Below, in pieces: positions 32,301 through 59,316 of a DNA stretch of 64,000 nucleotides. Location of the stretch: positions 1 through 64,000 of the forward strand of contig NZ_JXSL01000023.1 in assembly GCF_000829825.1 (NCBI RefSeq), read 5' to 3'. The notes below the pieces were generated by a model, which did not search any database, was not told the DNA's origin, and was given only the letters and a program-made list of their open reading frames with translations. Position numbers and translations under genes: made by a program. The DNA is from Paramagnetospirillum magnetotacticum MS-1 (GTDB taxonomy: Bacteria > Pseudomonadota > Alphaproteobacteria > Rhodospirillales > Magnetospirillaceae). The first letter of the stretch is position 1. Each line of letters begins with the position of its first letter.

Positions 32301-32318
32301 ATTCGACCAAGGTCGCAT
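32301..32318 (+). promoter_or_regulatory. PQQ-regulon element, site 1 (exaC)
   Basis: ATTCGACCAAGGTCGCAT, a near-perfect dyad (GACC-AA-GGTC), 120 bp upstream of the aldehyde dehydrogenase start. It matches the 18-bp consensus ATTnGACCTWTTGnCAAT at its left half. See the regulon finding. Confidence 0.65.
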
Positions 32319-32438
32319 GGAAAGTCTCCCTCAGCACGCGGTATCCATAGCAGATGCCAAGCCCTGATATCGGCGCCATCGCGCCAATGGGCCCTCGGCA
32401 ACGGCTTGTTTTCACCGCTCTATCCATGAGGAGCCACC

Positions 32439-33959
32439 ATGCTGTACGCCTCTCCGAACACTTCCGGCGCCAAGGTCCAGTACAAGGCCAAATACGATAA
32501 TTTCATTGGCGGAAAGTGGGTTGCCCCGGTCAAGGGCGAATACTTCGACGTCATCACGCCTATCAACGGCAAGGCCTATACCAAGGCGGCCCGCTCGGGC
32601 GCCGAGGATATCGAGCTGGCCCTGGACGCCGCCCATGCCGCCGCCGATGCCTGGGGCAAGACCCCTCCGGCCGAACGCGCCAATATCCTGCTCAAGATCG
32701 CCGACCGCCTGGAAGCCAATCTGGAACTGCTGGCCTATGCCGAGACGGTGGATAACGGCAAGCCCATCCGCGAGACCCTGGCCGCCGACATTCCGTTGTC
32801 GGTCGACCACTTCCGCTACTTCGCGGGCTGCCTGCGCGCCCAGGAAGGCGGCATGAGCGATATCGACGAGAACACCGTCGCCTATCACTTCCACGAGCCT
32901 CTGGGCGTGGTCGGCCAGATCATTCCCTGGAACTTTCCCATCCTGATGGCCGCCTGGAAACTGGCCCCCGCCTTGGGCGCCGGCAATTGCGTGGTCCTCA
33001 AGCCCGCCGAATCCACCCCCATCAGCATCCTGATCCTGGCCGAGCTGATCGCCGACCTGCTGCCGCCGGGTGTCTTGAACATCGTCAACGGCTATGGCCG
33101 CGAGGCGGGCATGCCCCTGGCGTCCTCCAAGCGCATCGCCAAGATTGCCTTCACCGGTTCCACCTCCACCGGCCGCGTCATCGCCCAGGCCGCCGCCAAC
33201 AATCTGATCCCGGCGACGCTGGAACTGGGCGGCAAGTCGCCCAACATCTTCTTCCCCGACGTGGCCCAGGCCGATGACGGCTTCTTCGACAAGGCCATCG
33301 AAGGCCTGGTCCTGTTCGCCTTCAACCAGGGTGAAGTCTGCACCTGCCCGTCGCGGGCCCTGATCCACGAATCCATCTACGACAAGTTCATGGACCGCGT
33401 CCTCGGCCGCGTCGCCGCCATCAAGCAGGGCAGCCCGCTCGACACCGACACCATGATCGGTGCCCAGGCCTCCAAGGAGCAGATGACCAAGATCATGTCC
33501 TATCTGGACCTGGGCAAGCAGGAAGGCGCCCAGTTGCTGATCGGCGGCGAGCGCGCCTATCTGGGCGGCGAGTTGAACGACGGCTATTACATCCAGCCGA
33601 CCCTGTTCAAGGGCCACAACAAGATGCGCATCTTCCAAGAAGAGATCTTTGGCCCCGTCCTGGCGGTCACCACCTTCAAGGACGAGGCCCATGCCCTGGA
33701 ACTGGCCAACGACACCCTCTACGGCCTGGGTGCGGGCGTGTGGAGCCGCAACGGCAACGTGGCCTACCGCATGGGCCGGGCCATCAAGGCCGGGCGTGTG
33801 TGGACCAATTGCTACCACGCCTATCCCGCCCATGCGGCCTTCGGCGGCTACAAGGAATCGGGCATCGGCCGCGAGACCCACAAGGTCATGCTCGACCACT
33901 ACCAGCAGACCAAGAACCTGTTGGTGAGCTACAGCGAAAGCAAGCTCGGCTTCTTCTGA
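32439..33959 (+). CDS. exaC: NAD+-dependent aldehyde dehydrogenase, ExaC/AldB type
   Basis: A 506-aa aldehyde dehydrogenase, same length as ExaC of Pseudomonas. Nucleotide-binding GSTSTGR, the glutamate in LELGGKSP and the catalytic Cys301 in [12 protein letters not shown], with a second Cys two residues on as in the ExaC/AldB group. It oxidises acetaldehyde and similar aldehydes made by the quinoprotein alcohol dehydrogenase at 40130. Start ATG 32439 follows ATGAGGAGCCACC. It carries a regulon element upstream and a terminator hairpin followed by DUF779 downstream. Confidence 0.93.
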
Positions 33960-33997
33960 TGGCCGGGCGGCACTTCGCTCCCCTTTGACGCCTTGAC

Positions 33998-34026
33998 GCG
34001 CCCGGCTTGCCGCCGGGCGCTTTTTT
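33998..34026 (+). terminator. Intrinsic terminator between exaC and DUF779 gene
   Basis: A 9-bp stem GCGCCCGGC/GCCGGGCGC (33998-34006, 34012-34020), loop of 5 nt, followed directly by six T. It lies 15 bp before the next start, so DUF779 depends on read-through or its own promoter. Confidence 0.85.
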
Positions 34027-34040
34027 CTGGGAGGTTCCCC

Positions 34041-57522: not shown

Positions 57523-57810
57523 ATGTCCGACGAATCAAAAATACTCATGACGGACATTATTGAGGTCAACCCAATATACCTGCTGCGCTGGGAAGAGTCG
57601 GAACAGGCTCATGTCCTTCTCTATCCTGAAGGCATCGTCAAGCTGAACTCGTCGGCGGGCGAGATCTTGAAGCGCTGCGTCGGCGGCCGTCAAGTCGGCG
57701 CGCTGATCACCGAGCTCAGCGCGCTATGCCCCGAAGAGGACATCGCCGCCGATATCCTGGCATTCCTGGAGATTTCCAATGACAAGTGCTGGACCCGCGT
57801 TAAGGCTTGA
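57523..57810 (+). CDS. pqqD: PQQ biosynthesis peptide chaperone PqqD
   Basis: A 95-aa RRE-type chaperone that presents PqqA to PqqE. Signature NPIYLLRWEESEQAHVLLYPEGIVKLNSSAGEILKRC. ATG 57523 follows GGAGGCAACT. Its end overlaps pqqE by 32 bp. Confidence 0.94.
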   Translation: MSDESKILMTDIIEVNPIYLLRWEESEQAHVLLYPEGIVKLNSSAGEILKRCVGGRQVGALITELSALCPEEDIAADILAFLEISNDKCWTRVKA

Positions 57811-58903
57811 TGGGCAGGGCAAACCGCTGTGGCTGGTCTGTGAACTGACCTATCGTTGCCCCCTGCAATGCTCGTGGTGCAACAACCCGCTGGAATTCGG
57901 CTCCATCACCGACGAGCTGTCCACCGAGGAGTGGAAGCGGGTCCTGGCCGAAAGCCGCGCCCTGGGCAGCCTGCAACTGGGCTTTACCGGCGGCGAGCCC
58001 GCGCTGCGCCCCGATCTCGAGGAACTGGTGGCCGAGGCCGACCGGCTGGGTTACTACACCAATCTGATCACCTCCACCGTGGGTCTCAGCGCCGAGCGTC
58101 TGGCGCGGCTTAAAGAGGCGGGCCTAAAGCAGATTCAGGTCAGCCTGCAATCCCATGACGCGGCGACCACCAATGCCCTGGTGGGCGCTCCGGTGCACAA
58201 TCACAAGATCGAGATGATCCGCGAGATCAAGGCCCAGGGCTTTCCCGTGGTGCTGAACATTCCCGTGGTGCGCCAGAACATCGCCCATGCCACCGCCTTC
58301 CTGGAACTGGCCCTGGAACTGGGTGTCGATTACGTCGAGTTCGCCAATGTCCAGTATTACAACTGGGCCCTGGTCAACCGCGACGAACTGATGCCGACCC
58401 TGGAGGAGCTCAAGGCCTCGGAAGCCGCCATCAACGCCTTCCGCGAGCGGGTCGGCAAGAAGATGACCGTCTATTTCGTCATCCCCGACTACTATAACGG
58501 CCGCCCCAAGGCCTGTATGAACGGCTGGGGCGCCATCATCATGACCATCGCGCCGGACGGTCTGGCCCTGCCCTGTCAGGAGGCCCGAATCCTCAAAGGT
58601 CTGGACTTCCCGTCGGTGCGCGATCATTCGGTGGAATGGATCTGGCGGGACTCCCCGGCGTTCAAGACCTATCGCGGCGACGGCTGGATGAAGGAACCGT
58701 GCCGGTCCTGCGACGAGAAGGAAAAGGATTTCGGAGGCTGCCGCTGCCAGTCCTATCTGCTGACAGGCGATGCCGCCAATCCTGACCCGGCCTGCTCGAA
58801 ATCGCCCTTCCACCATATGGTGAATCAGGCGATCATCGAGGCGCACCGGCCCCAGCGCAATTCCCGTCCGCTGGTCATGCGCAAGGCCGGGGCCGCAGGC
58901 TAA
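57779..58903 (+). CDS. pqqE: PqqA peptide cyclase PqqE (radical SAM/SPASM)
   Basis: A 374-aa radical SAM enzyme that links Glu and Tyr of PqqA. CX3CX2C motif in ELTYRCPLQCSWCNNPLEF, GFTGGEPALRPDL, and the C-terminal auxiliary-cluster cysteines CMNGWG, CRSCDEKEKDFGGCRC and the typical LTGDAANPDP. The normal length and all PqqE landmarks rule out a general SPASM protein. Overlaps pqqD. Confidence 0.96.
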   Translation: MTSAGPALRLDGQGKPLWLVCELTYRCPLQCSWCNNPLEFGSITDELSTEEWKRVLAESRALGSLQLGFTGGEPALRPDLEELVAEADRLGYYTNLITSTVGLSAERLARLKEAGLKQIQVSLQSHDAATTNALVGAPVHNHKIEMIREIKAQGFPVVLNIPVVRQNIAHATAFLELALELGVDYVEFANVQYYNWALVNRDELMPTLEELKASEAAINAFRERVGKKMTVYFVIPDYYNGRPKACMNGWGAIIMTIAPDGLALPCQEARILKGLDFPSVRDHSVEWIWRDSPAFKTYRGDGWMKEPCRSCDEKEKDFGGCRCQSYLLTGDAANPDPACSKSPFHHMVNQAIIEAHRPQRNSRPLVMRKAGAAG

Positions 58904-58933
58904 CCCCTTCATCAAGCCCTGTTCGGCAGGAGA

Positions 58934-59293
58934 ATGACCCCGATCATGACGGCACGCCTCAATACATGCATTTCATCTCCTGGTATTGGCGACAATTCCG
59001 GCCTTGCTCCCACCATCAGCGTCACGGTGAAGCTGTTCAACAGCCTGTCGCCTTACGCCGGTGGTTCGGCGCCGCTGCGCCTGGACGTGCCTGCCGGAAC
59101 CGTGATCGGCGAGCTTGCAGCCCGTTTTCATGTGCCTCGGGATAAGATCTTCCTGGTGCTGGTGAACGGCAAGGACGTCACCCGCCAGCTTGGCGCCCCG
59201 GTCAATCTGGACCGCGAACTCGACGATGGCGACGAAGTGGCCTTGTCCGGCCCGGTTCCCTATTCCTGGGGCTATGGCGCCCCCATCGTTTAG
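58934..59293 (+). CDS. MoaD/ThiS-like small protein
   Basis: A 119-aa protein with a beta-grasp core (ISVTVKLFNSLSPYAGG, RLDVPAGTVIGELAARFHVPRDKIFLVLVNGKDV, LDDGDEVALSGPVPYSWGYGAPIV). It does not end in the Gly-Gly used for thiocarboxylation, so it is not a typical sulfur carrier. It lies 30 bp after pqqE behind GGCAGGAGA. Role in PQQ synthesis or an associated step is unknown. Confidence 0.75.
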   Translation: MTPIMTARLNTCISSPGIGDNSGLAPTISVTVKLFNSLSPYAGGSAPLRLDVPAGTVIGELAARFHVPRDKIFLVLVNGKDVTRQLGAPVNLDRELDDGDEVALSGPVPYSWGYGAPIV

Positions 59294-59298
59294 ATGGC

Positions 59299-59316
59299 CT
59301 TAGACCTATTGGCAAT
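59299..59316 (+). promoter_or_regulatory. PQQ-regulon element, site 10 (pqqA)
   Basis: CTTAGACCTATTGGCAAT, a strong consensus match, 69 bp upstream of pqqA. It sits just after the MoaD-like stop, giving pqqA its own promoter. Confidence 0.7.

What the first reader, a model, noticed from the sequence alone, without database searches (positions are those of the whole stretch)
32301..59316. A ten-copy 18-bp element defines a PQQ/lanthanide alcohol-oxidation regulon
Seen: ATTnGACCTWTTGnCAAT or close variants at 32301, 36894, 42010(-), 46755, 46809(-), 52823, 54236, 57394, 57489(-), 59299. Nine of ten sit in promoter spacers of quinoprotein, pqq, aldehyde dehydrogenase, TonB receptor, ABC and protease units; site 7 is weak and overlaps a stop codon. 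None was noticed elsewhere in the window. At the two divergent promoters the copies are mirrored and each lies 105-118 bp from the gene it points to. The dyad core GACC-N2-GGTC (sites 1, 2) suits a NarL-type dimer. Inference: the operator of the response regulators at 39436 and/or 63745. I know of no description of this motif.
Basis: partly seen in the sequence, partly recalled or inferred. Interest (0 to 1): 0.88.

Follow-up and report, generated by a model that had tools for sequence, protein, structure and literature searches.

The report
Shared DNA switch for alcohol-oxidation genes
An 18-letter DNA signal in front of most alcohol-oxidation gene units of this bacterium (probably a Magnetospirillum) is very likely the docking site of one family of response-regulator proteins, a variant of a docking site already known for acetate genes in Pseudomonas.

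Summary
All ten sites exist (one coordinate is off by 2 bp); an eleventh lies just beyond the window. In the 4.52-Mb genome every asymmetric match with up to 2 mismatches (7 of 7) lies in 22.5 kb of this cluster. The element recurs at orthologous promoters (quinoprotein ADH, pedA1/cytochrome c550, exaC, pqqD, NosP, regulator) in other genera and families of the order, and in Azospirillum. A -10-like hexamer follows at 21-23 bp (0 of 2000 shuffles), putting the site at about -52 to -35, where the ACTU motif of CrbR/ErdR lies (PMC5715377). The cluster's two LuxR/NarL-type response regulators fall in one supported clade with Pseudomonas AgmR and ErdR-like proteins. Best reading: activator operator of AgmR/CrbR-clade regulators for a ped/exa-type PQQ-lanthanide alcohol regulon; a new variant of a known operator kind. 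Corrections: a close relative of the motif is in print; at the pedA1/cytochrome promoter the -10 evidence pairs each copy with the nearer gene; 'weak' site 7 is conserved. Against: two relatives with clade regulators lack the site, and symmetric-form matches are scattered in relatives. Binding was not tested.

The parts
32301..32318 (+). operator, symmetric form, upstream of exaC (32439+)
   Evidence: counterparts upstream of exaC in G009 and G007
32439..33959 (+). acetaldehyde dehydrogenase ExaC
   Evidence: NF050026, 946 bits over cut-off 900
34541..36886 (-). TonB-dependent receptor (start uncertain)
   Evidence: PF00593, PF07715
36894..36911 (+). operator, symmetric form, upstream of the TonB receptor; weakest site in leave-one-out, better palindrome in G009
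39436..40062 (-). response regulator RR1, LuxR/NarL type, AgmR/CrbR clade; about 67 bp behind the ADH gene, same strand (start inferred)
   Evidence: best NCBIfam model NF041830 ErdR, 183 bits, below its cut-off 390; tree
40130..41908 (-). PQQ alcohol dehydrogenase
   Evidence: TIGR03075 over cut-off; PDB 6zcw 942 bits, shares HDGWDFDG
42012..42029 (-). operator, asymmetric, ADH promoter
   Evidence: kept in an alignment of 8 genomes
42061..46692 (-). probable operon: cytochrome c550-like, SBP3, SoxYZ-like, SoxH-like hydrolase, pqqB, pqqC
   Evidence: adjacent same-strand ORFs; families; the cytochrome was named from its sequence, not scanned
46755..46772 (.). operator beside the cytochrome gene; TACCAT 22 bp on towards it
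46809..46826 (.). operator beside pedA1; TAGACT 23 bp on towards it
46889..50512 (+). pedA1A2BC-type transporter operon
   Evidence: pedA1 TIGR03863 over cut-off; pedA2 beta-propeller; pedB and pedC named by position and sequence, not scanned
50502..52775 (-). ABC transporter operon with an NMT1-type binding protein
   Evidence: binding protein PF09084; ATPase and permease named from sequence
52823..52840 (+). operator between the NMT1 operon (-) and PQQ_CXXCW (+); TAGACT 21 bp on towards NMT1, GATGAT 23 bp on towards PQQ_CXXCW
52876..53385 (+). PQQ_CXXCW / rhodanese-like protein
   Evidence: TIGR03865 over cut-off
53405..54169 (-). cytochrome c-Cache protein
54236..54253 (+). operator upstream of the cytochrome c-Cache gene; overlaps the end of the NosR-like ORF
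   Evidence: counterparts in G009 and G007; TAGCCT 22-23 bp downstream in all three
54243..57383 (-). M48 protease and NosR-like protein, probable operon (M48 start inferred)
   Evidence: PF01435; NF046105 490 bits, below cut-off 1000
57394..57411 (+). operator of pqqD
   Evidence: CACAAT at +23; counterparts in G009 and G027
57461..57466 (-). putative -10 TATAAT of the M48 promoter
57489..57506 (-). operator of the M48/NosR-like unit
   Evidence: TATAAT at +22
57523..58903 (+). pqqD, pqqE
   Evidence: frames; named from sequence, not scanned against a family library
59299..59316 (+). operator of pqqA
59339..59344 (+). putative -10 TAAAGT of the pqqA promoter
59386..63751 (+). pqqA (24 aa, named from sequence), Urate_ox_N-like ORF, NosP, NahK/ErcS-family hybrid kinase
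   Evidence: NF041558 and NF041832 over cut-off
63745..64000 (-). response regulator RR2 (gene runs to 64476); operator just upstream at 64494-64511(-), outside the window

Best explanation
The element is the operator of LuxR/NarL-type response regulators of the AgmR(ErbR/PedR1)-CrbR(ErdR) clade, here RR1 (39436) and/or its paralogue RR2 (63745). A phosphorylated dimer binds an 18-bp imperfect inverted repeat (ATTnGACC-WW-GGTCnAAT; common asymmetric form ATTnGACCTWTTGnCAAT) that ends next to the -35 element, at about -52 to -35, and activates a sigma-70 promoter whose -10 lies 22 +/- 1 bp beyond the site. Units so controlled would be exaC, TonB receptor, ADH-RR1, cytochrome c550 to pqqBC, pedA1A2BC, the NMT1-type ABC transporter, cytochrome c-Cache, M48/NosR-like, pqqDE, pqqA to nahK, and RR2, so both regulators would be under positive feedback. 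Shown: the sites, their conservation, their spacing to -10-like hexamers, the clade of the regulators. Inferred: binding, activation, phosphorylation, signal, operon structure.
For: Clustering: 7 of 7 asymmetric sites with up to 2 mismatches. Of the 17 genomes of the genus, own included, pedA1 is above the family cut-off only in G000, G009 and G007; G009 has 6 of 6 and G007 3 of 3 asymmetric sites on the contig that carries it, the 14 others 0-3 matches each. Orthologous promoters outside the genus keep the site. With a G000-only matrix on 17 non-genus stretches, 12 of 46 target promoters score >=13 where a clade regulator is in the stretch and 5 of 34 elsewhere, against 0.8% of 1794 random windows; without the two stretches chosen after a motif hit (L101, L123) 11 of 40 and 3 of 31 (a site between divergent genes counts for both). 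-10 spacing: mean score 3.13 against -2.22 (sd 0.44) for 48 sites, 0 of 2000 shuffles; also 0 of 2000 for the 20 sites outside the genus and the 11 of G000. RR1, RR2, AgmR and ErdR-like proteins share a 100/100 branch, apart from three PedR2 and four other own-genome regulators. Best NCBIfam model of RR1, RR2 and a Pseudomonas AgmR is ErdR, all below cut-off. ACTU sites of four CrbR-regulated units fit the matrix (p 0.0006-0.031) and the acs one lies at -52 to -36. In Terasakiella and A. brasilense the regulator beside the ADH is in the clade, the next-best ones put in the tree (3 and 4) are not, and the site is present.
Against: No binding or expression data. G144 and G283 have clade regulators near pedA1 but no scored target >=13 (G283: ADH 10.4, RR1-type gene 11.7). 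RR1-type genes outside the genus have no site of their own (0 of 8), though they may be co-transcribed. Of 79 pedA1 promoters in named genomes, 9 beat all 60 shuffles; no Pseudomonas or Stutzerimonas one among them. Of 8 ADH promoters there 4 did and 4 did not; that matrix included sites of some of these genomes. Over the 80 loci, 27 places score >=17 against 11 in the reversed control. Symmetric-form matches are scattered in relatives: 32 of 40 genomes have one with up to 2 mismatches, often above the control (G019 13 to 1), so that form alone is not specific. The -10 window 21-23 was picked from the same sites, and 14 of 48 sites score better on the other side. RR1 is about as similar to another own-genome regulator (C34, 170 bits) as to RR2 (166 bits). 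The porin/SHOCT unit has no site.
Confidence: 0.83

Rival explanations
1. The operator is read by another regulator encoded elsewhere (for example a PedR2/ExaE-type or another LuxR regulator), and RR1/RR2 are only neighbours.
For: In Pseudomonas the lanthanide switch is run by PedS2/PedR2 (PMC12997753 passages). The own genome has 16 matches to RR2 at E<=0.001, of which only six, RR1 and RR2 included, were in the tree; the C34 regulator is as similar to RR1 as RR2 is.
Against: The ACTU operator of CrbR resembles this one, and ErdR-like proteins fall in the clade of RR1/RR2, not with PedR2 or C34. Terasakiella and Azospirillum have the site and a clade member beside the ADH.
Confidence: 0.1
2. 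FNR/Dnr/NNR-type boxes (TTGA-N6-TCAA, recalled) controlling the cluster by oxygen or NO, as NosP and the NosR-like gene might suggest.
For: The symmetric pattern also picks up such sites elsewhere, for example C20:197087 (2 mismatches) and C20:198714 (3), near what look from sequence like a nirS gene and a Crp/Fnr-type regulator gene (not family-scanned).
Against: Such boxes need T at position 4. None of the 11 G000 sites and none of the 46 sites has it. The 46 were partly selected with a matrix that disfavours T there, but the 7 best genome matches to the pattern with N at that position also lack it.
Confidence: 0.03
3. A repeat spread by duplication within the cluster, not an operator.
For: All the best asymmetric copies lie in one gene cluster.
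Against: Flanks differ while the 18 bp are kept in several families; -10 spacing is fixed; sites are also found at exaC, ADH, TonB and NMT1 genes on other contigs of the draft assemblies G023 and G019, which may still be neighbours on the chromosome.
Confidence: 0.02
4. The symmetric and asymmetric forms are two operators for two regulators (RR1 and RR2, or a heterodimer).
For: Two paralogues and both forms occur together in G000, G009, G007 and G023.
Against: Terasakiella has both forms (ADH asymmetric, pedA1 symmetric) with one clade regulator among the four put in the tree.
Confidence: 0.12

Closest known systems
ACTU motif of CrbR/ErdR (P. fluorescens SBW25 and other Gammaproteobacteria; PMC5715377, passages and section 16 seen)
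   Same: Imperfect inverted repeat with a similar GAC/GTC core and AAT end, LuxR-type response regulator, position -52 to -36 directly before the RpoD promoter (acs), activation.
   Different: 17 bp as printed, acetate genes (acs, actP), Gammaproteobacteria, SLC5-type kinase CrbS. Here ATT/AAT at both ends, a common asymmetric right half TTGnCAAT, PQQ/lanthanide alcohol genes, Alphaproteobacteria.
AgmR/ErbR/PedR1 regulon of Pseudomonas (PMC12997753 and PMC13390443, passages seen)
   Same: Same gene set (ped/exa cluster, pqq genes), NosP-NahK pair next to the regulator, regulator of the same clade.
   Different: The passages seen give no operator for AgmR. Here two paralogues, RR1 behind the ADH and RR2 beside the NahK-type kinase, and pqq genes inside the cluster.
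EmaR motif of Acinetobacter (PMC9603970, passages seen)
   Same: Predicted motif of an ethanol response regulator.
   Different: Printed as xCTTATxxxxAT(A)xAT, unlike this element.
RpuR motif of Sinorhizobium fredii (PMC9100948, passages seen)
   Same: Motif needed for activation by a response regulator paired with a CrbS-like (SLC5/STAC) kinase.
   Different: An imperfect direct repeat at a pyruvate-symporter promoter.

Membership tests
ACTU-type operator (CrbR/AgmR clade) | imperfect inverted repeat with matching core | tested here: met
   ACTU sites of four CrbR-regulated units score p 0.0006-0.031 against the 11-site matrix
ACTU-type operator (CrbR/AgmR clade) | directly upstream of the -35 (-52 to -36) | tested here: met
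   -10-like hexamer 21-23 bp from the site end; transcription starts not mapped
ACTU-type operator (CrbR/AgmR clade) | acetate-utilisation genes as targets | tested here: inconclusive
   strong asymmetric sites front alcohol/PQQ genes; the acs and actP promoters of this genome were not examined, so it is not filed as ACTU itself
ACTU-type operator (CrbR/AgmR clade) | bound by a CrbR/AgmR-clade regulator that activates the promoter | not testable with these tools
   needs gel shift or reporter
ErdR (NCBIfam NF041830) for RR1/RR2 | score above curated cut-off 390 | tested here: not met
   183 and 134 bits
AgmR/CrbR clade of response regulators for RR1/RR2 | falls inside the supported clade | tested here: met
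   100/100 branch with AgmR and ErdR-like rows; those rows were named by gene context and rank, not by a library hit over cut-off
FNR/Dnr box | TTGA and TCAA half-sites (recalled) | tested here: not met
   no T at position 4 in the 11 G000 sites or the 46
PedH-type lanthanide alcohol dehydrogenase (ADH) | Asp two residues after the catalytic Asp (role recalled) | tested here: met
   HDGWDFDG as in 6zcw; ExaA 1flg has NDAWDFSG

The most novel reading that the evidence does not exclude
One ancestral operator code (ATTnGACC-WW-GGTCnAAT and its TACC-WW-GGTA relatives) is read by a whole clade of response regulators across Alpha- and Gammaproteobacteria, so that alcohol, acetate and lanthanide/PQQ genes share one class of box. 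The box may be directional: in 11 of 11 asymmetric sites lying between same-strand genes (9 ADH, 2 pqqA promoters) the degenerate TTGnCAAT half faces the promoter. Site 52823 and its G009 copy would be exceptions if they serve the NMT1 operon.
Probability: 0.35. Interest if true: 0.65.

Novelty: new variant of a known kind. Interest (0 to 1): 0.52.

Why it matters
In the papers I could see, AgmR is described as the top activator of PQQ/lanthanide alcohol oxidation without a stated operator. This gives a concrete, conserved candidate with a fixed promoter geometry, proposes the regulon's units (including poorly understood ones: NMT1-type transporter, cytochrome c-Cache, M48, NosR-like, TonB receptor), and links it to the acetate ACTU box, so that binding, cross-talk and lanthanide response can be tested directly.

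Tried and rejected
A sequence-only covariance model was weak for 18 bp: 4 hits up to E 10, three in the cluster and one at the intergenic C30:363931 place; only 150 of 1144 first-look candidates were scored, so it was not used for counts. Literal motif searches in papers gave long lists of unrelated papers; only the ACTU paper bore on this. 'Two forms for two regulators' is disfavoured by Terasakiella. FNR/Dnr box rejected on position 4. Pseudomonas promoters: the 18-mer was not found; a TACCTTGGTA-like dyad is seen upstream of pedA1 in five of the seven gammaproteobacterial loci looked at, without statistics, so it is a lead only; one search looked for diverged versions in ten stretches and settled nothing. 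Tree: two rows (a partial G260 protein and a distant G007 one) were dropped before building.
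Full report
Observation. The ten listed sites are in the sequence, with one coordinate shifted by 2 bp. The two at 32301 and 36894 instead fit the symmetric form ATTNGACCWWGGTCNAAT. Outside the listed sites the best window score is 12.1 bits against 18.3-29.7 for the sites; leave-one-out, 36894 drops to 11.3 and is the one site not secure on G000 alone.

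Genome scan. The genome holds 28 asymmetric matches with up to 3 mismatches (15 for the reversed control). All 7 with up to 2 mismatches are in C23:42012-64511, including a new one at 64494-64511 upstream of the regulator gene 63745-64476. The symmetric form gives 36 places with up to 3 mismatches (13 for the control) and 8 with up to 2, of which 4 are in the cluster; of the rest two resemble FNR/Dnr boxes, one is inside a called ORF and one is intergenic and unexplained.

Neighbourhood. The genes are a ped/exa-type cluster: ExaC, TonB receptor, PQQ ADH closest to PDB 6zcw, response regulator RR1, a cytochrome c550-like protein, SBP3, SoxYZ- and SoxH-like proteins, pqqB, pqqC, pedA1A2BC, an NMT1-type ABC transporter, PQQ_CXXCW, cytochrome c-Cache, NosR-like, M48, pqqD, pqqE, pqqA, NosP, NahK/ErcS-family kinase and regulator RR2. 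The cytochrome, pedB, pedC, pqqA, pqqD and pqqE were named from sequence and position only. If adjacent same-strand genes are operons, most units from 32.3 to 64.5 kb have an operator; the porin/SHOCT unit does not.

Conservation. Of 17 genomes of the genus only G000, G009 and G007 carry pedA1 above the family cut-off, and in G009 (6 of 6) and G007 (3 of 3) the asymmetric sites lie on that contig. G007's contig has the same length, 78673 bases, as a Magnetospirillum sp. MAG contig (L129), so the genus is probably Magnetospirillum. An alignment of the ADH promoter from eight genomes keeps the operator while the flanks diverge. Sites also occur at pedA1/cytochrome c550, RR2, NosP, exaC, cytochrome c-Cache and TonB receptor promoters of relatives; in G023 and G019 at exaC, NMT1, ADH or TonB genes on further contigs, and in G027 at a pqqD-like gene. 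In named genomes they are seen at the ADH of Azospirillum brasilense and Terasakiella brassicae. With a matrix from G000 alone, non-genus target promoters reach >=13 bits in 12 of 46 cases with a clade regulator in the stretch and 5 of 34 without, against 0.8% of 1794 random windows. Leaving out the two stretches chosen after a motif hit it is 11 of 40 and 3 of 31; ADH 4 of 5 and 0 of 2. Misses over both groups: PQQ_CXXCW 0 of 8, SBP3 0 of 10, RR1 0 of 8, NMT1 0 of 7. Among 79 pedA1 promoters of named genomes 9 beat all 60 shuffles, and among 8 ADH promoters 4 did (with a 25-site matrix that included sites from some of these genomes). The symmetric pattern with up to 2 mismatches is scattered: 32 of 40 relatives have one, several well above the control, so it is not specific by itself and may be used by other regulators.

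Promoter geometry. Forty-eight sites were read towards their presumed gene. A -10-like hexamer lies 21-23 bp after the site: mean score 3.13 against -2.22 (sd 0.44) in shuffles, 0 of 2000; for the 20 sites outside the genus 3.23 against -1.59, 0 of 2000; for the 11 of G000 3.32 against -2.24, 0 of 2000. The window was chosen after seeing the profile of 46 of these sites; of the 15 windows profiled the next best averages -0.37. The -35 matrix has a local peak starting at the last base of the site (0.46) and one inside it at TTGnCA (0.76), which is too far from the -10 for a usual spacer. The operator would span about -52 to -35. On the opposite side the mean is -0.27, also above its shuffles, and 14 of 48 sites score better there. 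Site 52823 scores better towards the NMT1 operon (TAGACT) than towards PQQ_CXXCW (GATGAT).

Regulator. RR1 is the closest relative of RR2 in the genome (45% identity); RR1 itself is about as similar to a third regulator, C34 (170 bits against 166 for RR2). In a tree of 37 rows (two dropped), RR1, RR2, Pseudomonas-type AgmR, ErdR-like proteins and the cluster regulators of Azospirillum, Terasakiella (G101), G039, G060, G144 and G283 share a 100/100 branch, while three PedR2 proteins and four other own-genome regulators, C34 included, lie outside. RR1 and RR2 lineages are sisters with moderate support (85/84), so the pair looks like a duplication in this family. The published ACTU motif of CrbR/ErdR is an imperfect inverted repeat at -52 to -36 of the acs promoter and needed for activation (PMC5715377; passages, section 16). 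Sites of four CrbR-regulated units match our matrix with p 0.0006-0.031. I therefore read the window's element as the alcohol-regulon variant of this operator class.

What is known. Passages seen in PMC12997753 and PMC13390443 describe AgmR/PedR1 as activator of ped and pqq genes without giving an operator. PMC8041468 mentions EraR once and has no hit for AgmR; PMC13086498 has no hit for either; PMC6115532 has no hit for motif, binding site or AgmR. PMC9927353 reports 15 ErdR target promoters, acsA among them but not ercS or agmR (passages); motif figures are not held. PMC8402216 passages report ErdR gel shifts in P. putida that bear on ACTU. A predicted EmaR motif in Acinetobacter and the RpuR direct repeat differ. 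Full-text searches for the motif letters and for AgmR/ErbR and related motifs (only the listed top papers were seen) showed no description of this element; most subscription papers are not held, so this is not proof of absence.

Judgement. It is a new variant of a known operator kind rather than a categorically new system. Binding, the signal, and the division of labour between RR1 and RR2 remain to be tested.

Noticed in passing
C23:64538-64555(-) of the own genome (L029:2539-2556): A second, degenerate site (14.5 bits) upstream of RR2; in G007 the region before RR2 also has a near-perfect palindrome (CTTGGACCTTGGTCGAAT, L092:11002), so the RR2 promoter may have paired operators.
   Followed up: partly
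L169:9903, L174:2153, L183:9867, L188:9888, L194:9903: Pseudomonas/Stutzerimonas loci have a TACCTTGGTA or GACCTTGGTA dyad upstream of pedA1, a possible AgmR operator; no statistics done.
   Followed up: partly
54243-56264: A NosR-like membrane protein (NF046105 490 bits, below cut-off 1000) sits in the alcohol cluster near NosP/NahK-type genes; no match to it was found in the G009 stretches.
   Followed up: no
53405-54169: Cytochrome c combined with a Cache-type sensor domain, with matches in G009, G007 and, in part, G023.
   Followed up: no
L135:6734, L161:6732 and 6809, L181:6810, L116:6736: Uncultured Alphaproteobacteria (32-33% G+C) have sites of 18-22.5 bits about 3.2 kb before pedA1; genes there not identified, and low G+C raises chance matches.
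   Followed up: no
C30:363931-363948 of the own genome: Intergenic symmetric site CTTCGACCTTGGTCCAAC, also hit by the covariance model; possible extra target.
   Followed up: no
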